DNA of 64,000 nt from Malania oleifera (Eukaryota > Streptophyta > Magnoliopsida > Santalales > Ximeniaceae): positions 93,725,691 through 93,789,690 of the forward strand of contig NC_080423.1 of NCBI RefSeq assembly GCF_029873635.1, in the 5' to 3' direction. The position numbers and the translations under genes are program-made. Positions within the stretch are counted from its first letter, which is position 1; every line of letters starts with the position of its first letter. The notes under the pieces were generated by a model. That model made no database searches. It had not been told where the DNA came from and saw only the letters and a list, made by a program, of their open reading frames with translations. Of this stretch, positions 5,483 to 57,973 are shown piece after piece.

Positions 5483-5660
5483 AATACAGCCTCACGCCAA
5501 ACATTTCATAAATACGATCTTGTGCCGTAATCATTTCATATATACATGGCTTCACGTCGGAATCATACATATATACGGCTTCGTACCGAAAACATACATA
5601 AATACAACCTCGCGCCAATCATCTCATAAATACGGCCTCACGCCAAAATCATACATAAAT
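5483..5660 (-). repeat. Degenerate 27-30-bp minisatellite in LTR E
   Basis: About six units each carry a CCTCACGCC-like core (minus strand GGCGTGAGG) followed by a CATAAATAC-type spacer. The homologous array in the LTR at 54829 is longer and better kept (56205-56482). Confidence 0.65.
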
Positions 5661-6303
5661 ACATCATTCTGAAAATAATCAATTTATCATGTATTTGTCA
5701 ACCTCATAACGTATTGTATACTTTCATAATTTCTCAAACCGCACTTCATTCATATCATTATCATATCATAATAATCCTCCATGTAAAATAATATTCATGC
5801 CACACATTTGTCGTATAAAACCATAGATTGTATTCTAAAAATCATAATTTCTGGCATCTCATACATATATATACATTTCAACATAGTAGCAGTATTTTTC
5901 TCAAACGTACATTTCCTTTGTATTATACAGATATAATACATGCTTTCTAGAAAATAACTTTTCTCAAAAATAATAATAATTTGCATGAAAATAACTACTT
6001 TAATTTATTCCCTTACTTGACTACTGAGAAAAGCCTCTATAAACTCTGGTCTCACACCCGTAGGATTTCCTAATCAATACCCTGAAAATGAAAACTCCCA
6101 GTATTAAATTTCAGTATTTTCACACGTATATCATTTCTTATAACTACCGTAAGACCAAATTTGGCTTAAAAAGTCTTACCTCAACTCAGGGATGAATTCC
6201 AACTTGCTTCCACTAACAATCCGCTCCGGCAGAATTGGAGAGAATTTCCCCAGGAGCATCGTGGTGGCTTCGGATTGTCAAACTGGCGTAAATTTGGCCT
6301 AAG

Positions 6304-6308
<5 letters not shown>

Positions 6309-6344
<36 letters not shown>
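6309..6344. repeat. (GA)n microsatellite in LTR leader
   Basis: A pure GA tract, read as CT on the LTR's own strand, just downstream of the promoter region. The B and C LTRs have matching tracts at 9255-9281, 16076-16130, 22900-22956 and 28290-28334. Confidence 0.9.
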
Positions 6345-6347
<3 letters not shown>

Positions 6348-6645
6348 GAACCGAAGGAAGGAGAGTGAGGATGAGAGTTTACTTAACCTTGAAGTTAAAA
6401 TCCGGATGATATTTATAGGATTGGATTCGTTGACGAAATCCACTCCTTGTCGACAAAATTCAGTCTGCCCAAATACCTCTCTCGATATTTCCTCATCGAC
6501 GAATCCTGTTTTCGTCGATGAATCCTTTTATACCCTTGTCGACGAATCCCCTGTATTCGTCGATGAACGCCTTCCTTCTTCTGTTACTGTTTCCATTTCC
6601 CTTCCTCTTTATTATTTAAATCCCATTATTATTCAGGTTGTCACA

Positions 6646-8929: not shown

Positions 8930-9249
8930 TGTAAGAACCCGACCCGAAAATTTCAGATCTAATAAATAAGTAAAGGGTAAAAAGGTAAATTAGGAGGCTT
9001 CATCAACGAAGCCATTGTTCTCGTCAACGAAGGCCCTTACACTCTTTGTCGCCGAAATTCAGAGCCTCGTCAATAAAGAGATACCAAATGAGTTTTAAAA
9101 TATCATAATAGGGTTCATCACCAAAGGAACCGACTAGTCGACGAAATGCTTGAATGGTTCATCGACGAAGGCGCCATCTCGTAGACGAATTGGACCTAGT
9201 CAAACGTCTATAAATAGGATATTTTCATTTCTTCATTGCTAAGAAAACT

Positions 9250-9280
<31 letters not shown>

Positions 9281-10733
9281 AGGGATTTGGGCCATCTATT
9301 ACTGGAATAAACAATCCAATGTTACCACATGGATTAGGAGGGGAATCTCTACATTTATAGGGGATCGAAATTTCGTTTCGAGGATTTTCAGGTTTTGACC
9401 CAAAATTGAGGTAAGGGTCCGATTTCGTTTTTGTTTTGGTATATATATAGTAGTGAGAATTGTAGTAAAGTATAGTTCTTTGATGTTTAGGTTTTGGGAA
9501 CTCGGTTCGTAGTTTTGGAGTTGTAGAGTTCAGGTTTTGGTATTCGGGCAATGGTAAGGGGATTCTATTTATATAAGTTATTTTTGAAATATGAATCGAT
9601 AAAACTGTAATTTACGATTCTACGTATGTTTTGACTACTTATTTGGGAAAATTTATCGAGTGAAAATACGAGATTTTCGGGTTACAGTTCTGGGAAAATT
9701 GGGGATTTCGGGTATCATCTTCGTTTCTGTTTGAAAACGTATGTTTGTATAAATTGAGGTATCAAGATGACCGTACCTGTATTTGTATTAAATTATATTC
9801 TCAAATTGAAAATGATATGATTTGTTGTATACCCATATAAGTGTGGAATGAACTGTTGTATGTAAAATGTTCCAGGTTTTGTGAAACATCCATGACGACT
9901 AATTACCATAAATTGAGAGGCATAGGAACATGAGTTCCAAAGGGTTCCAAGTTTTTTGAAATTTCCATGTCTCGACTAAATACCATGGGCAAATGCCACG
10001 TCTCAGCTAAATGTCGTGGGTAAGAGTGTCCGGCTCTATATCTGTGGGTGTGAAATACCACTTGTATACCGGTTGGTCACCGATGAGTGTTTTGACACCA
10101 TATTAGCAATGATATCGATGTGGGGCTTTGGCTAATGCCAGTTTATTAGGTGCTCCATGTAATGCAGCCTGACTTAGGCCGAAGAGTGTGATGACACTGA
10201 CCATATGTTTGGTGATAGGTATACTAGAACTGCGTTGTGAAAATACTGGAACTATATTTTGTTATGTTTTATGTCGAAATAACACTTATGTGCCACACAC
10301 TGATATAACCTATTTCTTCCTTACTGAGAGGTGTCTCGCCCCGACTATACAAATGTGTTTCATGTCCTTTGAGTAGCCGAAACTAGCGTCCTAGCATTCG
10401 GGAGCATGATTATTGGTTTGCCTCGTATAGTACTTGTGTAAGTATTGATTTTTAACTAGGTTTCCGTTGTTGGGTTTTGTAAACACCGGGGGTATGTACT
10501 ATATCTTGGAGCATAGACTCTGGTTATGTATAGACTCTAGTATGGTACGTCTTATGTACTAGAAAGAACATTTCCGTTGCGTATCTGATTTGTATGTGAA
10601 TGTGTATAGGTTTCGTTTACCTCATGGGGATAGACCCTCATTCAGTGTAGTATCATGTATTTTAAATGATACAGAGACAGGTTAGGTTACTAAATCACAC
10701 CCTGGGGGCCATCTACGGGTTCGGAGCGTGACA
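8930..10733 (+). repeat. B1: 5' LTR of chromovirus family B
   Basis: It starts TGTAAGAACCCGACCC and ends TCGGAGCGTGACA, 1804 bp. TATAAATAG is at 9209-9217, followed by a CT microsatellite (about 9255-9281). TCGTCGACGA-type words precede the TATA box, most of them mutated at CpG. TGAGAGGTGTCTCG is at 10325-10338. The sequence ahead of it is the interrupted copia gag. It is closely similar to B2 at 15748-17558 along its whole length. Confidence 0.9.
9209..9217 (+). promoter_or_regulatory. LTR B1 TATA box
   Basis: TATAAATAG about 280 bp into the LTR, followed by GATATTTTCATTTCTTCATT and a CT-rich leader. Copies with the same spacing occur in B2 (16028-16036) and B3 (22857-22865). Confidence 0.75.
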
Positions 10734-10736
10734 ACT

Positions 10737-10755
10737 TGGTATCAAAATTAACCAG
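10737..10755 (+). other. Primer-binding site of B1 (decayed)
   Basis: TGGTATCAAAATTAACCAG lies 3 bp after the LTR end. The expected initiator-Met complement is TGGTATCAGAGC; B2 still has that form. The changes at positions 9-12 fit simple decay. Confidence 0.75.
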
Positions 10756-11062
10756 GTTGTTAGGTCTTGTAGACTTGGTTAGGCATAGTTATGTGAATAT
10801 ACCAGAGTATAGGATGTAGGAAATGGGTAGAGTAGGTAGAGGGTTGTCTTGTAGCTAGACAGGGATTCATTGGCGGCGTTCTGTGTTTTTTCCTAGAATG
10901 ACGATTTCAGTAAAATCATGGCAAACCATTGATGGTTTCATGTTTGTGCGGTAGGACAGACTTAGGCCTGAGAGTCTAGAGTTTAACATGATTATTCTAT
11001 AATGATTGTGTTAACTACGCTATGATGTAGGAATGCTAATATATTCCTATACTATTTTCAGT
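10756..11062 (+). other. B1 leader between primer site and gag
   Basis: About 300 bp of untranslated leader, closely matched by 17581-17887 in B2. No reading frame is supported. Confidence 0.6.
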
Positions 11063-12005
11063 ATGAAGCCTAAAGATAGCAATTGGGATAGTAGTTTGGA
11101 GGGGACTGCGAGTGAAGGGTCACCTTCCATGCCTCTGGGTTTGACTAAGCATATCATGTGAGAGATCGGGCGAAGTGTTAGGGGACGGGAGTTTCCACCT
11201 ATAGCTGCAGGTTGCACCATTGAAAAGTTCACCCACATGCATCCTCCGATGTTTATTAGAGGGTCCGATCCGATTGTAGCGGAGAACTGGGTGCAGAAGA
11301 CAAAAAAAATATTGAAAGTTCTGCACTACACCGACGAACAAAAGGTTCTCTACGCTATGTTTTAGCTTGCAGGAGAAGCTAAGAGGTGGTGGGTGGCTAT
11401 GAGTACGCTTGAGGAGCAGAGGACTGATTCATCAGGGATGACGTGGGGCCGTTTTAAGGAGGTGTTCTTTGAGAGATACTTCCCAGCATCCATCCGTGAT
11501 GCGAAGGCATACGAGTTCTCGAGTATGACTTAGGGGACCCTGACAGTGCGGAGTTACGCAGCTAGATACATTGAGCTATTTTGCTTTGCGTCGTGTATGA
11601 TCTCGAATGAGTGCAAAAAGGCTCGAAGGTTCAAGAAGAGCCTGAGGAAGGACATTCGTAGGTAGGTGGGAATGCTACAGATACAGAAATTTTCTATTCT
11701 AATGGAGAAGGCCTCCGTAGTTAAGGCTGGTCTCCGAGAGGATGAGGTGGCACAGGATCAGAAGAAGAGGTCGGTACCTTCTGGTTCTTAGACAGGTTCA
11801 AGACAGGGGCAGTGGAAGAAGAGGAACCATGGTGTAGGAAATCGCCAGAACATGGAACGGTAGGGTCCACAAGGGGATCCATCTCCCGAGCGTTGTACTA
11901 AATGCCATACGTGGCATGATGGGGAGTGTCAGCCATTCATGTGTAACTGTTACTGCTGTGGCTAACCAACCATGTGTCTTGGAACTGTCCTACACCGATG
12001 ACTGG
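11063..12005 (+). pseudogene. B1 gag (capsid and zinc knuckle), broken
   Basis: Starting at the ATG of MKPKDSNWDSSLEG, the frame follows the gag of B2 closely: GCTIEKFTHMHPPMF, ENWVQKTKKILKVLH, LAGEAKRWWVAMSTLEEQR and MTWGRFKEVFFERYFPASIRDAK are the retrotransposon-gag (capsid) motifs. In-frame stops interrupt it after KHIM, after LYAMF and after SSMT. Near 11894-11965 a CCHC-type knuckle CTKCHTWHDGEC is followed by a damaged second one (CNCYCCG then a stop). Gag would package element RNA in virus-like particles; this copy cannot. Confidence 0.85.
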
Positions 12006-12059
12006 TACGGCTGCACCGAGCTAGAACTGGGGACAAAATCAGGTGCCTCGGGGAAACAC

Positions 12060-12440
12060 AGCTCAGGCGAGAGTGTATACACTTACTCCAGTGGACATAG
12101 AACATGCTGGCAACATGGTGACATGTATCATGTTACTGTTTTTAAATAAAGCTGTTGTTTTATTCGATTGAAGAGAAACCCACTCCTTTATATCTACGAA
12201 TTTTGTGAAAATATGTGGAGCTGAAACCATAGTGATGGATGAGGGGTTGTCTGTGGCTACACCATCTTGGAGTGTGTTGATCTGTAGGAAGATGTTAGAG
12301 AATGGCCTAGTGAATATGGTAGTATACGACATGTATGGGTTTGATGTTATACTGGGGATGAATTGGTTATCTTCCAATTTTTTGGTGATTTACTATCGTA
12401 GGAAAGTGGTGATGTTCAGACCTCCTGGGGAGCAGGAATG
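12060..12440 (+). pseudogene. B1 protease region, broken
   Basis: The retroviral-type aspartic protease is expected here. The active-site segment survives as LFD, then a stop, then THSFIS in place of the family's FDSGATHSFIS, so the catalytic triplet is lost. Further on, VVYDMYGFDVILGMNWLSSNF is the conserved C-terminal part of the domain (usually MGMDWL). Several frameshifts separate the pieces. No function remains. Confidence 0.75.
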
Positions 12441-12508
12441 AGTTCGTGGGATCGTGTGTGCGTTCAATACCACATATTCTATCGGCTACGTAGACGAGAA
12501 GGTTACTC

Positions 12509-13350
12509 TTGGACAGTTGTCAGGGGTACCTAGCTTGTGTGAAGGAACCACCACGGGATGATCTTAAACTTGAAGATATCCAAGTGGTTGATGATTTTCC
12601 GGATATATTCCCGGAAGACTTACCTGGTTTACCTTCTAATCGTGAGGCGGAGTTTACTATTGAATTGCTGCTAGGCAAGACACCAATTTCTAAAGCTCCA
12701 TACTGGATGGCTCCAGCTGAACATAAAGAGTTGAAGGAGCAATTACAGGAACTACTGGGTAAAGGCTTTATCCGACCTAGTGTTTCGCCCTGGGGAGCTC
12801 CAGTGTTGTTCGTGAAGGAGAAGGATAGCTCAATGAGAATGTGCATTGATTACTGTGAGATCAACAAGGTAACAGTGAAGAACCAATACATGTTGCCTCG
12901 TATAGATGATCTATTTGACCAGCCACAGGGAACGTAGGTCTTTTCAAAGATCGATCTACAGTTAGGGTATCATCAGGTGAAAGTTAGGACTGAGGATGTT
13001 GTGAAAACTGCTTTCCGAACTAAATAAGGTCACTATGAGTTTCTGGTCATGCCTTTTGGGTTGACTAATGCCCTGACGGTATTTATGGGCCTAATGAATA
13101 GGGTTTTCCATGAATACATGGATCAGTTTGTAGTGGTGTTTAATGATGATATCCTGGTATATTCTAAGAGTTCAGAAGAGCACGAAATCCATCTGAGGTT
13201 GGTACTTCAAGTACTACAGGAAAAGAAGTTGTATGCCAAGTTTAAGAAATGTGAGTTCTGGTTGAAGTAGATCGAATTTCTTCGCCATGTCATGTCGAGA
13301 GGTGGTATCTCAGTTGATCTAGGTAAGATAGAAGTAGAGGATGACTGGGT
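12509..13350 (+). pseudogene. B1 reverse transcriptase, broken
   Basis: Recognisable blocks in order: [24 protein letters not shown] (inter-domain linker), a [26 protein letters not shown] block (quoted here in two parts: [22 protein letters not shown]), [57 protein letters not shown] and the active-site block FNDDILVYS (usually FIDDIL; both aspartates kept). A stop follows QPQGT, another precedes GHYEFLV, and one follows CEFWLK. The polymerase copied element RNA into DNA; this copy is inactive. Confidence 0.85.
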
Positions 13351-13965
13351 GAAACTAAAGAGCGTGTAAGATGTTTGGAGTTTTCTAGGACTAGCTGGGT
13401 ATGACCGGTGGTTTGTGGAAGGATTCCCTAAGTTATCTGGCCCTATGACACGGATGATGAGGAAGGGTGTGAGATTTGATTGGACCGACGAGTGTGAGCA
13501 GAGTTTCCAGGAGTTGAAACACCAATTGGTCACTGCTCTGATTTTAACCATCCCATCTGGGGACGGTGGTTTTTTAATTTACAATGATGCATCGCTGAAG
13601 GGTTTGGGATGTGTGCTAATACAATAGGGGAAAGTAATTGCTTATACTTCTTAGCAACTCAAGGAGTACGAGAAGAATTACCCCACACATGATCTAGAGT
13701 TGGCAATAGTGGTATATGCGCTGAAGGTCTGGAGACACTACTTATACAGTGAATAGTATAAGATCTTCACGGAACACAAGAGCCTCAAATACTTTTTCAC
13801 ACAAAAGGAATTGAACATGAGGCAGAGAAGGTGGTTGGAACTGATCAAAGACTACGATTGCACCATTAGCTATCATCCATGGAAAGCTAATGTGGTAGCT
13901 GATGCGTTGAATCGGAAGTCAGAGCACACGTTAGTATCTACAATAGTAGGTCAACATCATATTAG
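13351..13965 (+). pseudogene. B1 connection and RNase H domains, broken
   Basis: The connection region shows a decayed FLGLAGYYRRFVEGF-type block (read here as FLGLAGYDRWFVEGFPKLSG). RNase H begins with YNDASLKGLGCVLIQ (first catalytic Asp in DAS), then a stop, then [20 protein letters not shown] and a decayed [22 protein letters not shown] block (TEHKS here), ending [24 protein letters not shown]. The domain removes RNA from RNA-DNA hybrids. At least three in-frame stops make it inactive. Confidence 0.82.
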
Positions 13966-14960
13966 ACGGGATCTGGAGAGTCTTGGCGTGGAGTTGGTGG
14001 ATGGTAATCATCAGGCTTTCATTACTAGGTTGGTAATCCAACCGACATTATTAGAGCCGCGCGGACTAACGATGAGGAGTTAGTCAAGGTAGTAGAGAAG
14101 TTGCAACAGGGACTGGCTACAGAGTTTAACATCTCCGAGGGAGGTGTCTTGAGGTTTAGAAACAGACTGTGTGTTCCAAACGAAGAAGGATAACGAGGAA
14201 GATTCTGAAATAGGTGCATCGTTCCTTGTATACAGTAAATCCGGGTAGCACAAAGATGTATCAGGATTTGCTCAAATCATTCTGGTGGAGTGGCATAAAA
14301 AGGGAGATTGCTCGATTTGTGGAACAATACCTGATGTGTCACAAGTAAAGGCTGAACATTAGAGGCCAGCAGGCCCATTGCAGCCATTGAGTATTCCAGA
14401 GTGGAAATGGGAGCATATTTCCTTGGACTTTGTTACCATATTTCTGATAGCGCTTCATGGGCAGAATGCAATTTGGGTGATCATGGACAGGTTGACAAAA
14501 TCTACTCACTTTGTACTGATAAAGGTTAGCTACACTTTGAGTAGGCTAGCAGACCTGTATGTGCAAGAGATAGTTAGAATACACGAGGAACCAGTTTCTA
14601 TTGTTTCAGATCGAGACCCAAGGTTCACTTCTCGGTTCTAGAAGAGCTTGCAGGAAGCACTAGGGACGAAGCTTACTTTCAGTACATCGTTCCACCCCCA
14701 AACTGATGGACAGTCAAAGAGGACAATACAGATCTTGGAGGATATGTTACGGGCTTGTGTATTAGACTTCGGTTGTAGTTGGATTTAGTTTCTACCATTA
14801 GTGGAGTTTGCCTATAACAATAGCTTCCAAGCTAGTATCGGGATGGCACCGTTTAAGGCATTCTATGGTCGGAGGTGTCGGTCTCCTTTGTATTGGGATG
14901 AGGTCGGTGAATGACAGGTATTGGGGTTCGAACTCGTGCAGCAGGCATCTGAGAAGGTTG
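13966..14960 (+). pseudogene. B1 integrase, broken; catalytic Glu replaced
   Basis: After a decayed HHCC zinc region (14140-14350), the core reads WEHISLDFVTIFLIALHG (first Asp), then VSIVSDRDPRFTSRF (second Asp), then after a stop [20 protein letters not shown]. The family has GQSERTIQ here, so the catalytic glutamate is lysine. The GPY-side segment continues with [21 protein letters not shown] and [12 protein letters not shown]. Stops occur after SRF and after WI. Integrase would join element ends to host DNA; this copy could not. Confidence 0.85.
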
Positions 14961-15459
14961 GTTTGATCAAGGATAGGATTAGATCAGCTTATAGTCGGCA
15001 GAAGAGTTACGCGGATGTTTGCCGCCGTGAGTTAGAAATCGGGGTGGGGGTAAGATATTCTTGAGGATCACTCCGATGAAATGAGTGATAAGGTTTAGGA
15101 AGAAGGTCACGTTAAGCCCGAGGTATATCAGACTGTTCGAGGTACTAGAACAAGTGGGTCCGGTGGCCTACAAGATTGCACTACCCCCAACGTTCTCGAG
15201 GATCCACGATGTGTTCCACGTATCCATATTGAGAAGGTATGTGCCGGATCCGTCACATAAGATTAGTTACGAATCTTTAGAGATTGGGGATACTATGGCG
15301 TATGAGGAGATACCCGTTCAGATTCTGGACCAGAAAGTTCAAAAGATGCATACCAAGGAGATACCATTAGTGAGAGTACTGTGGTGGAATCATGCGGTTG
15401 AGGAAACTTCTTGGAAATTGGAGATGGAAATACACAAGAAATATCCACATTTGTTCTGA
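14961..15459 (+). pseudogene. B1 integrase C-terminus with chromodomain
   Basis: An open stretch from about 15085 reads LSPRYIRLFEVLEQVGPVAYKIALPP (quoted parts: LSPRYIRLFEVLEQ, VGPVAYKIALPP), DVFHVSILRRYVPDPSH, then the chromodomain: EEIPVQILDQKVQKMHTK, EIPLVRVLWWNHAVEETSW, EIHKKYPHLF and a stop at 15457-15459. The chromodomain marks the element as a Tekay/Del-type chromovirus; such domains are thought to steer insertion into heterochromatin. Upstream frames are broken. Confidence 0.85.
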
Positions 15460-15747
15460 GGGTAATGTTTACAGGTACAGTTTAGGTAAGTATTTGATGT
15501 ATCTGTTAAAGTATTAATGTGTGGTTAGTCTCTAGGAGGGTTTTGTGATATTATGAACTCCCGTGACACTGTATATGTAACCACGGTATTCCTCCGCCAT
15601 AAGTGAGGGTATGTATGTATTTGGGACAGGGCAACAATGTGGGTGGTTGTCGACTCTTTCTAGATTCAAGTATGTGTTTGAGTTTTTGATGAGTTATCTA
15701 GTGGGAGATTACGAATTTCGAGGACGAAATTTTTTAATGAGGGGAGG
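15460..15747 (+). other. B1 3' untranslated region and polypurine tract
   Basis: Non-coding sequence ending in GAATTTCGAGGACGAAATTT and the polypurine tract GAGGGGAGG directly before the next LTR. The match in B2 is 22288-22577. Confidence 0.75.
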
Positions 15748-17558
15748 TGGTAAGAACCCGACCCAAGAATATCATATCTAATAAAAAAGTAAAGGGTAAA
15801 AAGGTAAATTAGCAGGATTCATCGACGAAGCCATTGTTCTCATCGACGAAGGCCCTTACACTCTTCGTTGCAGAAATTCAAAGCCTCTTCGATGAAGAGA
15901 TACCGAAAGAGTTGTAAAATATCGAAATAGGGTTCATTGCCAAAGGAACCGGCTCGTCGACGAAATGCTTGAATGGTTCGTCGACGAAGGCGCCGTCTCG
16001 TCGACAAATTGGACAGGATCAAGGATCTATAAATAGGATATTTTCATTTCTTCATTGCTAAGAAAACTCAAATCTCTCTTTCTCTCTCTCTCTCTAGAAC
16101 TCAAATCTATCTCTCTCTCTCTCTCTAGGGATTTGGGCTATCCGTTACCCGAATAAACAATCCAATGTTACCACGTGGATCAAGAGGGGAATCTCTACTT
16201 TTATAGCGGATCGGAATTTCGTTTCGAGGATTTTCGGGTTTTGAACCAAAATCGAGGTAAGGGTCTGACTTCATTTTTGTTTTGGTATATATGTAATAGT
16301 GAGAATTATAATGAAGTATAGTTCTTTGATGTTTAGGTTTTGGGAACTTGATTTGTAGTTTTGGAGCCGTAGAGTTCAGGTTTTGGTATTCGGGGGAAGG
16401 TAAGGGGATTCTATTTATATCAATTATTTTTGAAATCTGAATCAATAAAACTATAGTTTACGATTCTACGTATGTTTTGGCTACTTATTTGGGAAAATCT
16501 ATCGAGTGAAAATACAGGATTTTCGGGTTACAGTTTTGGAAAAATTAGGGGTTTCGGGTATCATCTCTGTTTCTATTTGAAAACGTATGTTTGTATAAAC
16601 TGAGATATCGAGATTACCATACCTGTATTTGTATTAAATTATATTCTTGAATTGAAAACGATCTAATTTGTTGTATACCCAAATAAGTGTGGAATGAGCT
16701 GTTGTATGTAAAATGTTCCAGGTTTTGTGAAACATCCGTGATGGCTAATTACTGTAAACTGAGTTCCAAAATGTTCCAAGTTTTGTGAAATTTCCATGTC
16801 TCGGCTAAATATCATGGGAAAATGCCACGTCTCGGCTAAATACCATGGGTAAGAGTATCCGGCTCTATATCCAAGGGTGTGAAATACCACCTGTATATAG
16901 GTTGGTCTCCGATGGGTGTTTTGACATCGTATTAGCGACGATATCGCTGTGGGGCTTCGGCTAATGTCAGGTTATCAAGTGCTCCGTGTAATGCGGCTAG
17001 ACTTAGGCTGAAGAGTGTGACGACACTGACTGTTAGTGATAGGTATACTGGAACTGCGTTGTGAAAATACTGGAATTGTATTGTGTTATGTTTTATGTCA
17101 AAATAACACTTATGTGCCACACACTGATATAACTTGTTTCTTTCTTACTGAGAGGTGTCTCACTCTAATTATACAAATGTGTTTTAGGTCCCTCAAGTAG
17201 CCAAAACTAGCGTCCTAGCGTTCGGGAACGTGGTTATTGGTTTGCCTCGTATAGTACTTGTGTAAGTACTATTTTTTTAACCGGGTTGTCATTGTCAGGT
17301 TTTGTAGAAACCTGAGGTATGTATTGTATCTTGAAGCGTAGACTCTTGTTATGCATAAACTCTAGTATGGTACATTGTATGTATTAGAAAGAACATTTTC
17401 GCTGCGTATGTGATGTGTATGTGAATGTGTATAGGGTACCTTTACCCTACGGGGACGGATCCTCATCCAGTGTAGTATCATGTATGTTAAATGATACAGA
17501 GACAGGCTAGGTTACTAAATCACACCCTTGAGCCCATGTGCGGGTTCGGAGCATGACA
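15748..17558 (+). repeat. B2: middle LTR shared by two family-B internal regions
   Basis: It starts TGGTAAGAACCC (B1 has TGTAAGAACCC) and ends TCGGAGCATGACA, 1811 bp. It serves as 3' LTR of the B1 internal region and as 5' LTR of the next one. TATAAATAG is at 16028-16036 with a double CT tract after it (16076-16130, a longer duplicated form than in B1). TGAGAGGTGTCTCA is at 17149-17162. Confidence 0.9.
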
Positions 17559-17561
17559 ACT

Positions 17562-17579
17562 TGGTATCAGAGCTAACCA
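17562..17579 (+). other. Primer-binding site of B2 (initiator tRNA-Met)
   Basis: TGGTATCAGAGCTAACCA lies 3 bp beyond the LTR end. The first 12 bases are a perfect complement to the 3' end of plant initiator tRNA-Met, the usual primer in this lineage. Confidence 0.85.
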
Positions 17580-17887
17580 GGTTGTTAGGTCTTGTAGACT
17601 TGGTTAAGCGTCGTTATGTGAACATACCAAAGTATAGGATGTACGAAATGGGTAGAGTAGGTCGAGGGTTGTCTTATAGCTAGACAGGGATTCATTGGTG
17701 GCGTTCTGTGTTTTTTCCTGGAATGACGATTTCAGTAAAGTCACGGCAAACCATTGATGGTTTCGTGTTTGTGCGGTAAGGCAGACCTAGACCTAAGAGT
17801 TTGGAGTTTAACAGGATTATACTATAATGATTGTGTTAACTGTGCTATGATGTAGGAATGCTAATATATTCCTATACTATTTTCAGT

Positions 17888-18586
17888 ATGGAGCCTAAAG
17901 ATAGCAACTGGTATAGTAGTTTAGAGGGGATTGCAAGTGAAGGGTCACCTTTCATGCCTCGGGGTTTGACCAAGCATATCATACGAGAGATCGGGCGAAG
18001 TGTTAGGGGATGGGAGTGTCCACCTACAGCAGCAGGTTGCACCATTGAGAAGTTCACCCGCATGCATTCTCCGATGTTTACTGGAGGGTCCGACTCGATT
18101 GTAGCGGAGAACTGGGTGCAGAAGGCAAAAAAGATATTAAAAGTTCTACACTGCACTGACAAGCAAAATGTTCTCTACGCTAAGTTTCAACTGGCAGGAG
18201 AAGCTGAGAGGTGGTGGGTGGCTATGAGTCTGCTTGAGGAGCAGAGAACTAATTCATCAGGGATGACGTGGGGCCGTTTTAAGGAGGTGTTCTTTAAGAG
18301 ATACTTCCCAGCTTCCGTCCGTGATGCGAAGGCAGACGGGTTCTCGAGTCTGACTCAGAGGACCCTGACAGTGCAGAGTTACGTAGCTAGATACATCAAG
18401 TTGTCTTGCTTTGCGCCATATATGATCTTTAACAAGTATGAAACGGCTCAAAGGTTCGAGAAGGGCCTAATGAAGGACATCCGTAGGCTGGTGGGAATGC
18501 TGCAGATTCGAGATTTTTCTGTTCTAGGGGAGAAGGCCACCTTAGTTGAGGTTTTTCTTCAGGAGGATGAGGTGGCAAAGGATTAG
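17888..18586 (+). CDS. B2 gag, open for 232 codons, truncated before the zinc knuckle
   Basis: I start at the ATG of MEPKDSNWYSSLEG because B1 and the gag of element C start at matching places; the frame is also open for ten codons upstream. Capsid motifs in order: GCTIEKFTRMHSPMF (about residue 55), ENWVQKAKKILKVLHCTDKQ (75), LAGEAERWWVAMSLLEEQR (103), MTWGRFKEVFFKRYFPASVR (128), LTVQSYVARYIKLSCFAP (158). The frame stops at LQEDEVAKD, just where basic linker and zinc knuckle should begin; the knuckle lies out of reach at 18715-18790. Gag forms the particle that holds element RNA. It is the best-kept frame in the window, though truncated. Confidence 0.82.
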   Translation: MEPKDSNWYSSLEGIASEGSPFMPRGLTKHIIREIGRSVRGWECPPTAAGCTIEKFTRMHSPMFTGGSDSIVAENWVQKAKKILKVLHCTDKQNVLYAKFQLAGEAERWWVAMSLLEEQRTNSSGMTWGRFKEVFFKRYFPASVRDAKADGFSSLTQRTLTVQSYVARYIKLSCFAPYMIFNKYETAQRFEKGLMKDIRRLVGMLQIRDFSVLGEKATLVEVFLQEDEVAKD

Positions 18587-19270
18587 AAGAAGAGGTCGGT
18601 ACCTTCTGGTTCTAAGATTGGTTCTAAATAGGGGCAGTGGAAGAAGAGGAACTATGGTGCAGGAAATCACCAGAACATGGACTGGCAAGGTCTACAAGGG
18701 GATCCATCTCCCGAGCGTTGTACCAAGTGCCATACGTGGCATGATGGGGAGTGCCAGCTATTCATGGGTAACTATTACCGTTGTGGCTAACCAAGCCATG
18801 TGTATCGGAACTATCCTACACTGATGACTGGTATGACTACCTTGAGCTAGAACCGGGGACAGAACCAGGTTCCTCAAGGAAACAAAGCTTAGGCGAGAGT
18901 GTACTCGCTTACTCCAGCAGACACAAAATGTGCTGGCAACATGGTGACAAGTATCATGATGCTGCTTTTAAATAAAGCTATTGTTTTATTCTATTCAAGA
19001 GCAACCCACTCCTTTGTATCTACGAATTTTGTGAAAATGTGTGGAGTTGAAACCCCACCGTCTGGGAGTGTGTTGATTTGTAAGAAGATGTTATAGAACT
19101 GCCTAGTGGTAATTCAGGGAAGATCCCTACCGGTGAATCTGGTAGTATACGACATGTACGGGTTTGATGTTATACTGGGGATGGATTGGTTATCTTCCAA
19201 TTTTGCAGTGATTGACTGTCGTAGGAAAGTGGTGGTGTTCAGACCTCCTGGGAAGTAGGAATATGAGTTC
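18587..19270 (+). pseudogene. B2 zinc knuckle and protease, broken
   Basis: CTKCHTWHDGEC (near 18720) is followed by YYRCG and a stop. RVYSLTPADTKCAGNMVTS marks the gag-protease junction. The protease active site reads VLFYSRATHSFVS where the family has FDSGATHSF; catalytic Asp and the Gly are replaced by Tyr and Arg. VYDMYGFDVILGMDWLSSNF closes the domain (19146-19202). Stops and frameshifts separate the parts. Confidence 0.8.
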
Positions 19271-20194
19271 GTGGGATCGTGTGTGCGTTCAACGCCACAG
19301 ATTCTGTCGGCTATGCAGGCGAGAAGGTTATTCTTGGACGGTTGTCAAGGGTACCTAGCTTGTGTGAAGGAACCACCACGGGATGATCTTAAACTTGAAG
19401 ATTTCCAAGTGGTTGATGAATTTTCAGATGTATTCCTGGAAGACTTACCTGTTTTACCTCCTGATCATGAGGTAGAGTTTGCTATTGAATTTCTGTTAGC
19501 CAAGATACCAATTTTTAAAACTCCATACCGGATGACTTCAGCTGAACTTAAAGAGTTGAAGGAGCGGTTATAGGAACTACTGGATAAGGGCTTTATCCGA
19601 CCTAGTGTTTCACCCTTGGGAGCTCCAGTGTTGTTCATGGAGAAGAAGGACAGCTCAATGAGAATGTGCATTGATTACCATGAGATCAACAAGGTAACAG
19701 TGAAGAACCGTTACCCGTTGCCTCGTATAGATGATCTATTAGACCAGCTGCAGGGAACACAGGTCTTTTCAAAGATCGATCTACGGTCAGGGTATCATCA
19801 AGTGAAATTTAAGACTGAGGATGTTGCAAAAACTGCTTTCCAAACCATAGACAATCACAAAGAGTTTCTGGTCATGCCTTTTGGGTTAACTAATGCCCTG
19901 GCGATATTTATGGACCTAATGAATAGGGTTTTCCATGAATACCTAGATCAGTTTGTAGCGGTGTTTAATGACGATATCCTGGTATATTCTAAGAGTTCAA
20001 AAGAGCAAGAAAACAATCTGAGGTTGGTACTTCAGGTACTACGAGAAAATAAGTTGTATGCCAAGTTGAAGAAATATGAGTTATGGTTTAAGCAAATCGC
20101 ATTTCTTGGTCATGTCGTGTTGGGAGGTGGTATCTCAGTTAATCTAGGTAAGGTAGAAGCAGTGGTTGAATGGGTGAAACTGAAGAGCATGTAA
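19271..20194 (+). pseudogene. B2 reverse transcriptase, nearly intact but split
   Basis: The frame 19271-19573 holds the linker (DEFSDVFLEDLPVLPPDHEV) and ends at a stop after LKERL; from 19616 a 192-codon open frame carries [80 protein letters not shown] and FNDDILVYS. The aspartate pair of the active site is present, with Asn in place of the usual Ile before it. The frame stops after WVKLKSM, in the connection region. Confidence 0.85.
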
Positions 20195-20800
20195 GATGTT
20201 TGGAGTTTCCTAGGACTGGCTGGGTATTACCGGCAATTTGTGGAGGGATTTTCTAAGTTATATGGCCCTATGACACGATTGACGAGGAAGGGTGCGAGAT
20301 TTGATTGGACTGACGAGTGCGAGTAGAGTTTCCAAGAGTTGAAATACCGATTGGTCACTGCTCCGATTTTAACCATCCCATTTTGGGACGATGGTTTTGT
20401 GATTTACGGCGACGCATTGCTGAAAGGTTTGGGATGTGTGCTAATGTAACAGGGGAAAATAATTGCTTATGCTTCTCGGCAACTCAAAGAGTATAAGAAG
20501 AATTACCCCACGCATGATCTGGAGTTGGCAGCAGCAGTATATGCGTTGAAGATCTGGAAACACTACTTATACAGTGAACAGTGTGAGATCTTCATGGACC
20601 ACGAAAGCCTCAAATACTTTTTCACACAAAAGGAGTTGAACATGAGGCAAAGAAGGTGGTTGGAACTAATCAAAGACTACGATTGCACCATTAGCTATCA
20701 TCCATGGAAAGCTAATGTGGTAGCTAATGCGTTGAACCGGAAGTCAGAGCACACGTCAGTATCTACAATAGTATGTCAGCATCATATCAGATGAGATCTG
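20195..20800 (+). pseudogene. B2 connection and RNase H, broken
   Basis: FLGLAGYYRQFVEGFSKLYG is the connection block. RNase H starts YGDALLKGLGCVLM (DAS changed to DAL, first Asp kept), then a stop. A second open stretch (20525-20794) has [39 protein letters not shown] and [17 protein letters not shown], where the family's VADALSRKS has Asp replaced by Asn. Inactive. Confidence 0.82.
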
Positions 20801-21747
20801 GAGAGTCTTGGTGTGGAGTTGGTGGATGGTAATCATCAGGCTTTCATTGCTAGGTTGGTAATCCAACTGACATTATTAGAGTCGCGCAGACTAACGATGA
20901 GGAGTTAGTCGAGGTCGTAGAGAAGGTGCAGCAAGGACTGGCTACAGAGTTTAGCATCTCCAAGGGAGGTGTATTGAGGTTTGAAAATAGACTGTGTGTT
21001 CCAAACGATGAAGGGATAAGGAGGACGATTCCGGAAGAGGCGCATCGTTCCTTGTATATAGTACATCCAAATAGAATGAAGATGTATCGGGATTTGCGCG
21101 AATCATTTTGGTGGAGTGGCATAAAAAGGGAGATTTCTCAATTTTTGGAATAATGTCTGACGTGTCAATAGGTAAAGGCTAAACATCAGAGGCTGACAGG
21201 GCCATTGCAGCCATTAAGTATTTCAGAGTGGAAATGGGAGCATATTTCCATGGACTTTGTCACCGGATTGCCACTAGCGCTTTATAAGCAGAATGCAATT
21301 TGGGTGATCATGGACAGGTTGACAAAATCTGCTCACATTGTACTGATGAAGGTTAGCTATCCTTTGATTAGGCTAGCAGACCTGTACGTGCAAGAGATAT
21401 TTAGAATGCATGGGGTACCGGTGTCCATTGTTACAGATTGAGACCCAAGGTTCACTTCTCGATTCTAAAAAAGCTTATAGGAAGCACTGGGGACGAAGCT
21501 TACTTTCAGTATAGCGTTCTACCCCCATACTAATGGACAGTCAGAGAGGACGATACATATATTGGAGGATATGTTACGGGCTTGTGTATTAGACTTCGGT
21601 GGTAGTTGGATTTAGTTTCTACCATTAGTGGAGTTTGCATATAACAATAGCTTCCAGGCTAGTATTGGGATGGCACCATTTGAGGCATTGTATGGTCGGA
21701 GGTGTTGGTCTCCTCTGTATTGAGATGAGATCAGTGAACAACAGGTA
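20801..21747 (+). pseudogene. B2 integrase core, broken
   Basis: The N-terminal zinc region reads EEAHRSLYIVHPNRMKMYRD and SFWWSGIKREISQFLE with conserved histidines, followed by a decayed CX2C. The core has [20 protein letters not shown] (first Asp), SIVTD then a stop then DPRFTSRF (second Asp), and [20 protein letters not shown] with the catalytic Glu kept. Stops occur after TD, after SRF and elsewhere. Confidence 0.82.
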
Positions 21748-22287
21748 TTGGGGCCCGAACTCGTGCAGCATGCTTTTGAGATGGTTGGTTTGATCAAGGA
21801 TAGGATTAAATCGGCTCAGAGTTGGCAGAAGAGTTTCGCAGATGTTCACCGCTGTGAGTTGGAATTCGAGGTAGGGGGTAAGATATTCTTGAGGATCACT
21901 CCGATGAAAGGAGTGATGAGGTTCAGGGAGAAGGTCAAGCTGAGCCCGAGGTACATCGGACCATTCGAGGTACTGGAACAAGTAGGTCCAATGGCCTACA
22001 AGATTGCACTACCCCCAGCACTCTCGAGGACCCACCATGTGTTCCACGTATCCATGTTAAGAAGGTACGTGCCGGATCCGTCACATGTGATTAGTTACAA
22101 ATCTTTAGAGATTAGGGATACTTTGGAGTATGAAGAGATACCCATTCAAATTCTGGACCAGAAAGTTCAAAAGTTGCGTACCAAGGAGATACCATTAGTG
22201 AAAGTACTGTGGCGGAATCATACGGTTGAGGAAGCTTCTTGGGAATTGGAGATGGAAATACACCAGAAATATCCACATTTGGTCTGA
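21748..22287 (+). pseudogene. B2 integrase C-terminus with chromodomain (179-codon open frame)
   Basis: The open frame starts in the integrase C-terminal region (LVQHAFEMVGLIKDRIKSAQ), passes LSPRYIGPFEVLEQVGPMAY and HVFHVSMLRRYVPDPSH, and ends with the chromodomain EEIPIQILDQKVQKLRTKEI, PLVKVLWRNHTVEEASWELE and EIHQKYPHLV plus stop. The aromatic and acidic residues expected of the group-II chromodomain of Tekay-type elements are present. It is part of a polyprotein, so the upstream stops make it a pseudogene. Confidence 0.85.
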
Positions 22288-22577
22288 AGGGTAATGTTTA
22301 CAGGTACGATTTAGGTAAGTATTTGATGTATCTGTTTAGAGAATTAATGTGTGGTTAGTCTTTGGGAGGGTTTTGTGATATTTGAACTCCTGAGACACTG
22401 TATATGTAACCACGGTATTCCTCTGCCATAAGTAAGGGTATGTATGTATTTGGGACGAGGCTGCTATGTGGGTGGCTACCGACTCTTTCTAAAGTCGGGT
22501 ATGTGTTTGAGTTTTTGACGAGTTATCTAGTGGGAGATTATGAATTTCGAGGACGAAATTTTGTCATGAGGGGAGGT
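22288..22577 (+). other. B2 3' untranslated region and polypurine tract
   Basis: Matches 15460-15747, ending GAATTTCGAGGACGAAATTT and GAGGGGAGG before the LTR start. Confidence 0.75.
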
Positions 22578-23007
22578 TGTAAGAATCCAACCTGAGATCT
22601 TCATATCTAATAATTAAGTAAAGAATAAAAAGGTAAATTAGTAGGCTTCGTTAACGAAGTCATTGTTCTCGTCAACGAAGGCCCTTACACTCTTCGTCGC
22701 CGAAATTTAAAGCCTTGTCAATGTAGAGATACCGAACGAGTTGTAAAATTTCGAAAAAGGGTTCATCGCCGAAGGAACCGGCTCGTCGACGAAACACTTG
22801 AATGGTTCGTCAATGAAGGCGCCGTCTCGTCGAAAAATTGGACAGGATCAAGGATCTATAAATAGGATATTTTCATTTCTTTAAAACTAAGAAAACTCAA
22901 ATCTCTCTCTCTATCTCTCTCTCTCTTTAGAACTCAAATCTCTCTCTCTCTCTCTAGGGATCTAGGCTATTTGTTACCCGAATAAACAATCCAACGTTAC
23001 CACGTGG
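22578..23007 (+). repeat. B3: 5' 430 bp of a third family-B LTR
   Basis: It starts TGTAAGAATCCAACC and follows B2 through the TCGTCGACGA cluster, TATAAATAG (22857-22865) and the double CT tract. The match ends at CCACGTGG (23007). The remaining 1.4 kb of LTR is missing and a minus-strand gag fragment begins at once, so this is a deletion or recombination junction; both partners have a TCAA word near the break. Confidence 0.85.
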
Positions 23008-23008
23008 T

Positions 23009-23490
23009 CAAATTAGTGAACACTTCAATCTTCTTCTCTCTAACAAACGAAGTAAAATACCTGTCAAAGAACAGCTCCTTGAATCTCTCCTAGGTAAAAG
23101 CTATATTTTCCAGCCTCCGGTCCTCTAGCAGTTTTGCAGATAGCCACCAACGTTTCACTTCTCCAGTCATCTTGAAAGCATCATAACGGACCTACTACTC
23201 GTCCGTGCAGTCGAGTACAGTCATGATCTCCTCTATTGTACCCAATTCTCTACAGCCAATGAATCAGGTCCTCCTACAAAAATTGGAGGGTTCATCCTCA
23301 TAAACTCCTTAATACTGCAGCCCTGACTTGCAAGTGGACAGTTATGTTCTTTAGGTTCCTTCTTCATCTCTGCCCTAACCTGGCGGGCTATAACCCGTAG
23401 CACCTTGGAGGTATCAACATCCTCTTCACTAGAAGTATCTGAACCTTTCCTTCCTTTAGCCTATACGTCCTCATCTTTAGGATCCATCAT
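23009..23490 (-). pseudogene. Gypsy family A gag (N-terminal part), broken
   Basis: Read on the minus strand from MMDPKDEDV at 23490, it shows an acidic start (SDTSSEEDVDTSKVLRV), ARQVRAEMKKEPKEHNCPLA, GCSIKEFMRMNPPIFVGGPD, EKWWLSAKLLEDRRLEN and FTWERFKELFFDRYF, all capsid motifs of Tekay-like gag. There are in-frame stops and a frameshift near 23260-23200. The gene is cut off at 23009 where LTR B3 is joined. Confidence 0.8.
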
Positions 23491-54823: not shown

Positions 54824-55031
54824 GATAATGTAAAAACCCAAAAAGAAATATAAAATATGAATGGATTGATTTCCAAAAAATAAAATAAAATAAATAAAAA
54901 ATAATAATAATAATAATAATAATAATAATTAATTAATCGGATTTAAAAGAAAAAGAAAAAAAATTTAATTAAAATTTATTTTATTTTTTTAATAAAATAT
55001 ATTATTATTAATATTAATTAAATATGTATTT

Positions 55032-55080
<49 letters not shown>

Positions 55081-56204
55081 TTCTGATATAAATGATTCAC
55101 GCCCCCCCCTCTTATATTCTATCTTCTTCTTCTTCTTTATTTATTTATTTATTTATTTTGTCCTGCAACTCTCTGTAATCTCTCTCTCTCCTCACGTTCT
55201 CTCTTCCTCTCTCCTCGTTTTCGTGACGGATTTTCGCCTGATCGAAAATCCGAAGATACCATTGGACTCCATTCGCCGTTGCCGTCATTTCTACCGGAGC
55301 GGATCGGTGGTAGGAGCGGCGTAAGCGTATTCCCTGGGGTAAGTCATTTTTCCATTTTTCTTTAATTTCTTGCAAAATATAAGCCCACTTGACGAACGGA
55401 CACCACCACGAGAATCTAGAGATGATTCTCTACAAGTCTAGTGGGACGAAATTCTCATGGGGGTGTCGGGCCAAAACCCCAAATTTGGGGTGCAGCAATT
55501 ATTAAGGGGTTTATTTTTAATTAATTAGAATTAATTTAGAAATGCTAAAATAGTAAGCATCTGAGACTGAAGTAGGATTTCTGAAATTTAGGGTTCGGGT
55601 GAGTGTCGCGGGTGTAATTTTGGGACCCGCAGGTAAAATTTAGAAAATTAAGTAGGGATATTAAATAATAGTTTAAATGTTAATTTGAGGTATATGGAGT
55701 TTAAGGAAGGCTAGATGAGTATTATTTTGGAGAAATAAATTAATTAATCTGGAAAAAAATGTAAATTGCAGGAGTTAAATTTCGGGCGCCAAGGGCGTGA
55801 AATTTTGGATCTTAACGAATTTCTCAGTAGGCAGGTAAGGGAATAAACTAAAGCAGTAATTTTCCATACAAATTATTATTGATTATGAGTAAATTTATTT
55901 TCAGAAAAGCATATGTTATATTGTGTATTACGAATGAAATGTACGATTGGGAAAATATTGCTATGATGATTAAAATGCATATGTATGTATGAGATGTAAG
56001 GATTCACGATTTTAGAATATGAAGTATGACTTTTAACAGCATATGTGTGGCATGAATATTATTTTATGTGAAATGTATTATGTGTGAAAAATTTTACGAA
56101 CCAAGCATGATTTCAGGTATTATGAAAATATGAGTTATGTTGTAATGGTTTTGACGATTATGTAATAAATGATGTATTTTCAGTATATATATACCTGAAA
56201 CAAT

Positions 56205-56482
56205 TTTGGCGCGAGGCCATATATTTATGTTATCGGCACGAGGCCGTATCTATGTTTTTGGCGCGAGGCCATATATTTATGTTATCGGCACGAGGCCATA
56301 TTTATGTTATTGGCGCGAGACCATGTATTTATGTTATCGGCACGAGGCCGTATTTATGCTATCGGCACGAGGCCGTATTTATATTATTGGCGCGAGGCCA
56401 TTATTATGATTTTGGCGCGAGACCATATGTATGATTTTGGGGCGAGGCCGTATCTATGTTTTCGGCACGAGGCCGTAATGAT
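56205..56482 (+). repeat. 24-28-bp minisatellite GGCGCGAGGCC(A/G)TAT, 11 units
   Basis: Units start near 56209, 56237, 56261, 56288, 56312, 56339, 56363, 56387, 56412, 56439 and 56464; a twelfth stands alone at 56575. Each has a GGCRCGAGGCCRTAT core and a TTTATGTTATC-type spacer. GGCGCGAG and GGCACGAG units are mixed, differing by a transition at CpG. The array lies in the transcribed part of the LTR. Three overlapping open frames cross it but only mirror the repeat. Confidence 0.9.
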
Positions 56483-57002
56483 GTTACGTTTGATCATGTA
56501 TTATACGTTTTCACAACCAGGATGTTAGTTTAGTTCAGACCAGAAGCTCGGTACCGTAGTTATGGGTTAATTTTGGCACGAGGCCTTATTAGTGCTACTG
56601 TCTCACGAGGGGATAGGAGATGGATAGTCGATGTGGCTTTCAGTAGAGTGTGAACGTCCACTTGGCAGTCCGGACCAGGGTGTGGCGGGCTCATCGTACT
56701 TACAAACATATTTCATTCGGTAGTGGTCGGCCAGCCATTGTCGGGTCCTGCCTTCGGGCTGTACAACCCATTATGGGGGGTAATACATGACACCAGCTAG
56801 TTAGTCATCCTGGGTTTGTTTTCAGTACTACAGTTATAACAGATGATTTTATGTATGATATGATTTATTAACAGATGTGAAAATATATGTTTACTCAGTA
56901 CGATATGATTATGTTTATAGAATTATGAAATGTACTGTATACGTACAAATGCATTAAATATTTATGTTGCCATACAACTGTATTTAGTTTATTTTCCCTT
57001 AC

Positions 57003-57016
57003 TGAGAAGTGTCTCA
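57003..57016 (+). promoter_or_regulatory. Conserved LTR near-palindrome TGAGAAGTGTCTCA
   Basis: TGAGA and TCTCA arms around AGTG, preceded by CTTAC and followed by CCCC, 330 bp before the LTR end. Same module as at 3248-3261 in an unrelated LTR family. Confidence 0.6.
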
Positions 57017-57349
57017 CCCCCAAACTTAATTAATTTTTCAGGAGCTCCTGAGAGACTGGCGGGTCAGGGCCGCCGCCATTGAGCTAGTGAGATTACCCTG
57101 TGAGAAGGGTAAGATTTTGTAATAGCGTCAGAGTTATTTTGTGTTTGACCCTAGAGATATTTGGATGTATGTGAGGATATAGAGAATGCTCTGTTATTAT
57201 GTTTTATGATTGGATGTTTGAGATTTTATGTTTACTGCTGCTAGGTTTTCCGCTGTGTTTGATAGGTGTCTCCGCTACCCACGGGTTCGGGTTGACCATT
57301 TTATTTATTATGTGATATTTTATGTTAAGAAATTGAGGGACGTTACATT

Positions 57350-57417
57350 TGGTATCAGAGCCAGGTTTCGATCTTGGGACCTGTGGGTTATGGGCCCACC
57401 ACGATTCCGCTACGCAC
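57350..57417 (-). other. Near full-length antisense copy of initiator tRNA-Met (extended primer site)
   Basis: Starting with TGGTATCAGAGCCAGGTTTC, the sequence matches the reverse complement of plant initiator tRNA-Met from its CCA end through T arm (GGTTTCGATC), variable loop, anticodon arm (GGGTTATGGGCCCA, with anticodon CAT as ATG) and D arm almost to the acceptor stem, with about four differences. Usual primer sites hold 12-18 nt. It is not a tRNA gene: the tRNA 5' end is missing or scrambled and it abuts the LTR with a 2-bp gap exactly like a primer site. The tRNA sequence used is from general knowledge. Confidence 0.88.
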
Positions 57418-57720
57418 TATGCTAGCATTGATTGCCATCAGAGAGTGGTAGTGTTTAGACTTCCAGAGGGACAGGAGTACAAATTCGTGGGATCACGTGT
57501 GCGCACCCCACCTCAGTTATTATCTGCTATTCAGGCACATAGATGGCTATCAGAAGGTTGTCAGGGATATTTAGCCTATGTGAAGGCTGTATCAGAATGG
57601 GAACTGAGGGTGGAGGATATCCCAGTGGTGAGGGATTTTCTTGATGTATTCCCCGAGAATTTGCCGGGACTACCTCCTGATCGTGAGGTAGAGTTCGTTA
57701 TTGATCTGGTTCTGGGGAAA
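57418..57720 (+). pseudogene. Gypsy pol fragment (protease end to reverse transcriptase start)
   Basis: The frame reads YASIDCHQRVVVFRLPEGQE, YKFVGSRVRTPPQLLSAIQA, HRWLSEGCQGYLAYVKAVSE, DIPVVRDFLDVFPENLPGLP and DREVEFVIDLVLGK without a stop. It is the linker between the end of protease (normally [15 protein letters not shown]) and the start of reverse transcriptase, the same region as 12400-12690 in B1. It begins exactly where the tRNA copy ends and ends exactly where the LTR start begins. It is the only internal coding sequence of the element. Confidence 0.88.
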
Positions 57721-57915
57721 TGTAAAACCCCAAAAAGAAATATAAAATATTAGTGGATTGATTTCCAAAAAATAAAATAAAATAAAATAATTAAATTTTT
57801 TTTCTTTTTCTTTTAAATCCGATTAATTAATTATTATTATTATTATTAGTATTTTTTATTTTATTTTTTAGAAATCAATCCACTAATATTTTATATTTCT
57901 TTTTGGGTTTTTACA
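57721..57915. repeat. Asymmetric palindrome made of LTR starts
   Basis: 57721-57785 is LTR position 1-65 (TGTAAAACCCCAAAAAGAAA onward). The following 130 bp are the inverted complement of LTR positions 1 to about 150, ending GGGTTTTTACA. The two arms share the variant ATTAGTGGATTG, where the 5' LTR has ATGAATGGATTG, so each arm is closer to the other than to the 5' LTR. That is what copying one arm from the other predicts. Confidence 0.85.
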
Positions 57916-57973
57916 GATAAAATGAGGATTCTTCCTCTTACGGGTAGAATCATAATCACTTCCCTTTTCGAAG

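What the first reader, a model, noticed from the sequence alone, without database searches (positions are those of the whole stretch)
54829..57915. Retroelement inserted with two U3 ends: palindromic right terminus and perfect target duplication
Seen: GATAA flanks the unit exactly at TGTAAAAACCC on the left and at its inverted complement GGGTTTTTACA on the right. The right end is not a U5 end but an inverted copy of the LTR start, preceded by a direct copy of the same start. Known: LTR integrases make 5-bp duplications and act on TG...CA ends. Inferred: a cDNA end snapped back, primed on itself, and integrase accepted the resulting U3-U3 molecule. The two right-hand arms share a variant (ATTAGTGG) missing from the 5' LTR, as a self-copy would.
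Basis: partly seen in the sequence, partly recalled or inferred. Interest (0 to 1): 0.9.

Follow-up and report, generated by a model that had tools for sequence, protein, structure and literature searches.

The report
Retroelement integrated by two U3 ends
A plant retrotransposon copy was inserted with the start of its long terminal repeat at both ends, after reverse transcription went wrong in a way that can still be read in the sequence; a second such copy lies elsewhere in the same genome.

Summary
A 3,087-bp LTR-retrotransposon copy (54829-57915), flanked by GATAA, starts at U3 nt 1 and ends at U3 nt 1 inverted. The host is very probably Malania oleifera.

The copy is: LTR; a nearly complete reverse copy of the primer tRNA-iMet (57350-57418); 303 bp of pol (57416-57718); AATG-U3(1-62); inverted U3(161-1). 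The pol|U3 joint keeps AA before TG, as at the family's PPT/U3 border (30 of 30 PPTs read); the outer ends are trimmed to TG/CA.

A second U3-U3 insertion lies on C12: 4,175 bp, TSD TTATG, inside an LTR whose relatives show the empty site. It has U3 palindromes at both ends, U6 snRNA copies and pol.

Best reading: both termini are 5' ends of PPT-primed plus-strand strong-stop DNAs. One read through the tRNA, the other folded back; template jumps joined them through pol, and integrase accepted two U3 ends. U3-U3 integration is well supported; the route is inferred. Read support was not testable, and no empty site was found for the window copy.

The parts
54824..54828 (.). left target duplication GATAA
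   Evidence: equal to 57916-57920
54829..57347 (+). 5' LTR, TGTAAAAACCC...GGGACGTTACA, 2,519 bp; left terminus is U3 nt 1
   Evidence: solo LTRs of the family (L023, L024, L027) have matching ends and 5-bp duplications
57348..57349 (+). TT between LTR end and PBS
   Evidence: sequence
57350..57418 (-). reverse copy of initiator tRNA-Met: PBS (TGG... includes CCA) and nearly the whole tRNA body, to about tRNA nt 6-8; last three bases ACT shared with pol
   Evidence: Rfam RF00005, 26.8 bits at 57353-57423 minus, gathering score 29; alignment to genomic tRNA-Met(cat) genes L070, L071
57416..57718 (+). pol fragment (protease/RT spacer), 303 bp, gag and most of pol missing
   Evidence: 96.0% to full-length relative L029:4781-5083; protein relatives
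57719..57720 (+). AA kept between pol and TG, as at the PPT/U3 border of the family
   Evidence: 30 of 30 PPTs read end AGAA before the LTR; 0 of 14 other pol copies read have AA here
57721..57782 (+). inner (direct) arm, U3 nt 1-62
57767..57781 (.). 15-nt tract (U3 47-61) complementary to U3 147-161, where the strand switch lies
57767..57915 (-). outer (inverted) arm, U3 nt 161-1; right terminus is U3 nt 1
57916..57920 (.). right target duplication GATAA

Best explanation
The copy is an aberrant reverse-transcription product that was integrated in the normal way. Both termini are the 5' ends of PPT-primed plus-strand strong-stop DNAs, so both are U3 ends. Left: one such strand copied U3-R-U5, ran through the primer binding site and nearly the whole primer tRNA, and jumped at the shared ACT into pol. 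Right: another such strand stopped in a T-rich tract near U3 nt 161, annealed to the complementary U3 47-61 of itself or of a sister strand, copied back to that strand's 5' end (...ACATT) and jumped into pol at GGGGA. The finished duplex had AATG.../...CATT at both ends; integrase trimmed these to TG/CA and inserted it with a 5-bp duplication. Shown: the anatomy, the duplication, the tRNA copy, the kept AA, and a second U3-U3 insertion elsewhere. Inferred: the order of events, jumps rather than end joining, displaced strong-stop strands as the material, and that integrase did the joining.
For: Target duplication with two exact U3 termini (chance 0.0016). Second insertion at C12:85915120-85919294 with TSD TTATG, both outer ends U3 nt 1, empty site in related LTRs. 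Joints keep AA/TT: the window pol|U3 joint, and three informative joints at C12, two of which may be copies of each other. tRNA-iMet copy after the PBS. Fold-back complementarity. Inner arm shorter than outer arm in both asymmetric palindromes: 62 against 161 nt, about 113 against 139 nt (read). No other place crosses the pol|U3 joint (40 of 3963 candidates scored). Ty3 makes several plus-strand starts per PPT and accumulates dead-end strong-stop DNA (PMC5371799 section 2.2).
Against: No reads examined; no empty site for the window copy. Pol and PPT share GGGGA, so a deletion there plus loss of one G gives the same joint. At C12 the pol|U3 joint is ambiguous because pol itself supplies AA, and a joint inside p1 lies in a T run. 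The two C12 terminal palindromes differ in how alike their arms are although they share one age, which speaks against self-priming in at least one. Only two loci were found in the lengths scanned. In Ty3 only 12 nt of the tRNA are copied, here about 69.
Confidence: 0.75

Rival explanations
1. Same U3-U3 integration, but the pieces (a tRNA-ended strong-stop, a pol fragment, a folded-back U3 piece) were joined by host end joining before integration, not by template jumps.
For: The pol|AATG joint has no clear microhomology and keeps an intact cDNA end, as end joining would.
Against: ACT is shared at the tRNA|pol joint; at C12 U3 ends are joined to the exact 3' end of U6 and one joint shares ACTA with pol, which fits copying of RNA templates. 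tRNA copies stop near the tRNA 5' end in four of five other places read.
Confidence: 0.12
2. An ordinary insertion was rearranged later: repair copied inverted U3 into the 3' LTR and returned at TTACA, which the U5 end (GGGACGTTACA) and inverted U3 (GGGTTTTTACA) share next to GATAA.
For: The shared TTACA is real and would keep the duplication.
Against: Needs two switches, the second within 5 bp of the LTR end; does not explain the kept AA at the pol joint or the tRNA copy; a second locus with both ends U3 and U6 RNA copies inside would need it again, twice.
Confidence: 0.07
3. Two separate insertions in opposite orientation were fused by a deletion between their U3 parts; equal GATAA is chance.
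For: Nested and facing LTR copies are common in plants (general knowledge).
Against: Chance of equal 5-mers 0.0016, and it would have to happen at C12 too. The forward U3 is preceded by pol, not by the PPT.
Confidence: 0.04
4. Assembly or read artefact that created the inverted repeat.
For: Chimeric inverted reads exist (general knowledge); no reads could be examined here.
Against: The arms carry different private changes (sites 8 and 46, a 15-nt microsatellite difference), and the inverted arm ends exactly at the duplication. A similar structure lies on another contig.
Confidence: 0.02

Closest known systems
Template-switching complex LTR elements of Triticeae, rice and maize (Sabot and Schulman 2007, PMC1950507; main text read)
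   Same: Unusual LTR insertions flanked by one target duplication, used there to infer a reverse-transcription origin instead of later recombination.
   Different: Those have three LTRs and two internal domains with normal outer LTRs; here one end is an inverted U3 and there is no U5 terminus.
Ty3/Ty1 PPT recycling and plus-strand strong-stop transfer (review PMC5371799; passages and section 2.2 read)
   Same: Repeated plus-strand starts from one PPT, a first strand that copies into the primer tRNA, displaced and dead-end strong-stop strands.
   Different: Described for yeast particles and 12 nt of tRNA; here inferred from genomic insertions in a plant, with about 69 nt of tRNA copied and strands found integrated.
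U6 chimeras made by template switching (PMC4476161, passages read)
   Same: U6 RNA captured by a reverse transcriptase jumping to its 3' end.
   Different: Mostly LINE-made; the paper mentions only a few old snRNA copies with LTR elements. Here U6 lies between U3 palindromes of a U3-U3 insertion on C12.
In vitro joining of U3-U3 donors by avian retroviral integrase (recalled, not read here)
   Same: Two U3 ends used in one concerted integration.
   Different: Designed donors and purified enzyme; here natural insertions.

Membership tests
LTR retrotransposon, Ty3/gypsy type | LTR with TG...CA ends and 5-bp target duplication | tested here: met
   LTR 54829-57347 TG...CA; GATAA on both sides of the insert; three relatives with 5-bp duplications. 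The right end is not an LTR end of the U5 kind.
LTR retrotransposon, Ty3/gypsy type | PBS complementary to a tRNA | tested here: met
   TGGTATCAGAGC at 57350 continuing as a tRNA-Met copy
LTR retrotransposon, Ty3/gypsy type | pol of the Ty3/gypsy kind with its domain order | tested here: inconclusive
   The internal ORF has no Pfam match; several of its protein relatives carry PF08284 or PF00078; integrase order was not tested
LTR retrotransposon, Ty3/gypsy type | two LTRs with PPT before the 3' LTR | tested here: not met
   No PPT and only U3 nt 1-62 forward at the right end: a defective derivative
Template-switching complex element (Sabot and Schulman) | three LTRs, two internal domains, similar outer LTRs | tested here: not met
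   One LTR, one short internal piece, inverted U3 end
Template-switching complex element (Sabot and Schulman) | one target duplication around the whole | tested here: met
   GATAA
Product of PPT recycling (Ty3 model) | termini at PPT-primed plus-strand starts | tested here: met
   Inner joint keeps AA as at the PPT border, outer ends at U3 nt 1; a GGGGA deletion with loss of one G is not excluded
Product of PPT recycling (Ty3 model) | several plus-strand starts from one PPT in one particle | not testable with these tools
   needs cDNA from particles
Solo LTR | single LTR between the duplications | tested here: not met
   tRNA copy, pol and palindrome follow the LTR

The most novel reading that the evidence does not exclude
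Reverse transcription of plant Ty3/gypsy elements makes several displaced plus-strand strong-stop DNAs per cycle (PPT recycling). These fold back and jump end to end onto tRNA, U6 and pol templates, and integrase accepts pairs of U3 ends. The result is a class of genomic insertions with two U3 termini whose inner joints preserve the unprocessed cDNA ends.
Probability: 0.42. Interest if true: 0.75.

Novelty: new variant of a known kind. Interest (0 to 1): 0.62.

Why it matters
PPT recycling and plus-strand transfer were worked out in yeast Ty1/Ty3. These insertions look like genomic fossils of such intermediates in a plant, readable to the base: plus-strand start two bases before TG, copying through the tRNA, fold-back, end-of-template jumps. 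They also suggest that integrase in vivo can use two U3 ends, perhaps because the U3 and U5 cDNA ends share AATGTAA/TTACATT. Programs that demand two LTRs would probably overlook such copies, so how common they are is open and easy to test.

Tried and rejected
Rejected: the shared ATTAGTGG as a sign of self-copying (family state). Corrected: my notes put the end of the tRNA copy near 57424; alignments give 57415-57418. My note gave the solo LTR as 4625-6642; the sequence gives 4623-6645.

Led nowhere: U3 patterns in viral contigs, 0 matches in two scans; Pfam on the internal ORF, no family; ARAGORN on the window, no tRNA. Left flank against the genome: 8 places with itself, none of the other 7 reaching the junction, so no empty site. 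The stretch downstream of one other tRNA copy (L072, L075) runs into gag and pol; its right end was not reached.

Literature: ten searches for U3-U3 integration, inverted LTRs, self-priming, retrosequences and U6 chimeras (openly licensed PubMed Central papers only; 5 to 20 rows asked for or returned) listed no natural U3-U3 insertion that I recognised by title or abstract. Subscription journals were not searched, and no search was made for tRNA read-through copies.

Limits: palindrome patterns need exact tips; total lengths 121-271 with TGTAAAANCCC and inner gaps 31-152 with GTGGATTGATTTC were scanned, longer ones were not. DNA searches scored 40 candidates (of 1603, 3963, 2879), so uniqueness of the right end and of the joint is what the ranking shows, not proof. 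The 30 PPTs are the first 30 loci of a search whose query held the PPT, so they are biased towards it. A first count of U3 starts (39 rows) held duplicates and spurious rows; one search replaced it.

Full report
What was claimed and what is there. The window lies at C7:93725691-93789690 of a 1.49-Gb assembly. The best protein relative of the internal ORF is from Malania oleifera, and another hit of that name sits on a contig of 88,385,804 bp, the length of C12 here. The element runs from 54829 to 57915 with GATAA on both sides. Its left part is a 2,519-bp LTR ending GGGACGTTACA at 57347. Other LTRs of the family have the ordinary form: L023, L024 and L027 are single LTRs with CTTAT, GGTAG and CCATA on both sides. 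Two random 5-mers of the window agree with probability 0.0016.

The right end. From 57721 U3 is read forward for 62 nt and then backward from nt 161 to nt 1, ending at the target duplication. The switch lies on AAAAAATAAAATAAA (U3 47-61), the reverse complement of U3 147-161. Some self-complementary tracts of this U3 are as long or longer, but those listed are ATA or TA repeats. No other place matched the whole 231-base right end (40 of 1603 candidates scored), and no other place crossed the pol|U3 joint (40 of 3963).

The variant argument. In 33 distinct U3 starts that hold the motif, the two sites behind ATTAGTGG read TTAGT in 31, ATAGT in 1, TTAAT in 1; none has the 5' LTR's GAAT. The arms carry the family state and the 5' LTR has changed. 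The substitutions in the first 62 nt (two private to the LTR, one private to each arm) fit three sister copies of one age and do not show that one arm was copied from the other.

The inside. After the LTR and TT, 57350-57418 is a reverse copy of initiator tRNA-Met including CCA: Rfam tRNA 26.8 bits, a little below its gathering score of 29, with CAU at the anticodon, and alignment to genomic tRNA-Met(cat) genes L070 and L071. Three relatives (L025, L029, L030) have no tRNA body behind their PBS. Then 57416-57718 is pol, 96.0% identical to the full-length relative L029, with ACT shared at the joint. The left half thus looks like plus-strand strong-stop DNA that ran through the PBS and nearly the whole primer tRNA and then jumped. 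Of 28 tRNA matches in the genome one is the window itself; of the other 27, 15 include the CCA-derived TGG, 3 begin at the last G of it, and 9 begin later. I read 5 of the 15: four run to near the tRNA 5' end and one (L074) stops about halfway. Four of the five are preceded by TCACA, the shape of an LTR end, which I did not test further. L072 continues into gag and pol. Read-through copies therefore recur in this genome.

The pol|U3 joint. The first 30 loci of a search with the PPT in its query all read AGAA before the LTR (30 of 30; one has CG for TG). The window reads TTCTGGGGA|AATG, and none of 14 other pol copies read has AA after that point. The joint keeps exactly the two bases between PPT and TG, as expected of an unprocessed plus-strand 5' end. 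The caveat: pol and PPT share GGGGA, so a deletion there with loss of one G would look the same.

A second case. Pattern scans for facing U3 starts (backward controls 0 in each) found two loci: the window and C12:85915120-85919294. At C12 an LTR breaks after TTATG and resumes with TTATG. Five other LTRs show the uninterrupted site (GATTTTATG in four, GATTTTATA in one), so the empty site is known. The 4,175-bp insert starts with U3 nt 1 and ends with inverted U3 nt 1. It holds a 252-bp U3 palindrome, U6 copies (Rfam 91.9 and 73.5 bits), further U3 pieces, 3.3 kb of inverted pol (92% to L029) and a 180-bp U3 palindrome. Inner joints keep AA/TT: palindrome|U6, U6|U3 and U3|U6 are informative, though the first two may be copies of one another. 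Two joints are ambiguous: one in a T run, and pol|U3, where pol itself supplies AA. AA has a frequency of 0.09-0.11. The outer ends lack these two bases, as after integrase processing. The U3-U6 joint pattern was found nowhere else (3 exact matches, all in this insert).

Mechanism. In both inserts each terminus is the 5' end of a PPT-primed plus strand, and no terminus comes from tRNA-primed minus-strand DNA. Ty3 is described as priming several times from one PPT, with the first strand copying 12 nt of the tRNA, strands displaced by later ones, and dead-end strong-stop DNA accumulating (PMC5371799, section 2.2). Such free strands could fold back or jump. Fold-back predicts an inner arm no longer than the outer arm: 62 against 161 nt in the window, about 113 against 139 nt in the left C12 palindrome (read); the right one is nearly symmetric and says nothing. 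The U3 and U5 cDNA ends share AATGTAA/TTACATT, which may be why integrase accepts two U3 ends. Against strict self-priming: the arms of the right C12 palindrome differ at several sites while those of the left are identical over 50 nt, so at least one fold-back may have used a sister strand.

Shown: the anatomy, two U3 termini with duplications at two loci, the tRNA and U6 copies, the kept AA. Inferred: order of steps, jumps rather than ligation, displaced strong-stop strands as material, integrase as the joining enzyme. Not shown: read support; an empty site for the window copy; frequency beyond the scanned lengths. Ten searches of openly licensed papers listed no natural U3-U3 insertion that I recognised. 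The nearest reasoning in print that I read is that of Sabot and Schulman, who use an outer duplication to separate reverse-transcription products from recombination (PMC1950507).

Noticed in passing
L068 (C2:66063070-66063370), L069 (C11:33844620-33844920), L072 (C5:42399300-42399600), L073 (C9:79645290-79645540), L074 (C4:117393060-117393260): Reverse copies of tRNA-iMet with CCA, four of five behind TCACA like an LTR end; copies run to near the tRNA 5' end in four, about halfway in L074.
   Followed up: partly
L062 3121-7295 (C12:85915120-85919294): U3-U3 insertion with U6 snRNA copies in inverted arrangement between U3 palindromes, TSD TTATG.
   Followed up: yes
window 8931-23011: Three related LTR stretches in a row (8931-10734, 15750-17559, 22579-23011 partial) around two internal regions, like a shared-LTR complex element; outer duplications not examined.
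   Followed up: no
window 4623-6645, minus strand: Single LTR of a related family with ATAAG on both sides (read).
   Followed up: partly
window 56206-56486: Tandem array of 25- and 27-nt units with GGCRCGAGGCC inside the LTR; similar units in the related LTR at 5574-5658.
   Followed up: no
window 57349-57753: A 134-aa open frame runs across the tRNA copy, pol and the U3 palindrome; no Pfam match, probably an accident of the joints.
   Followed up: partly
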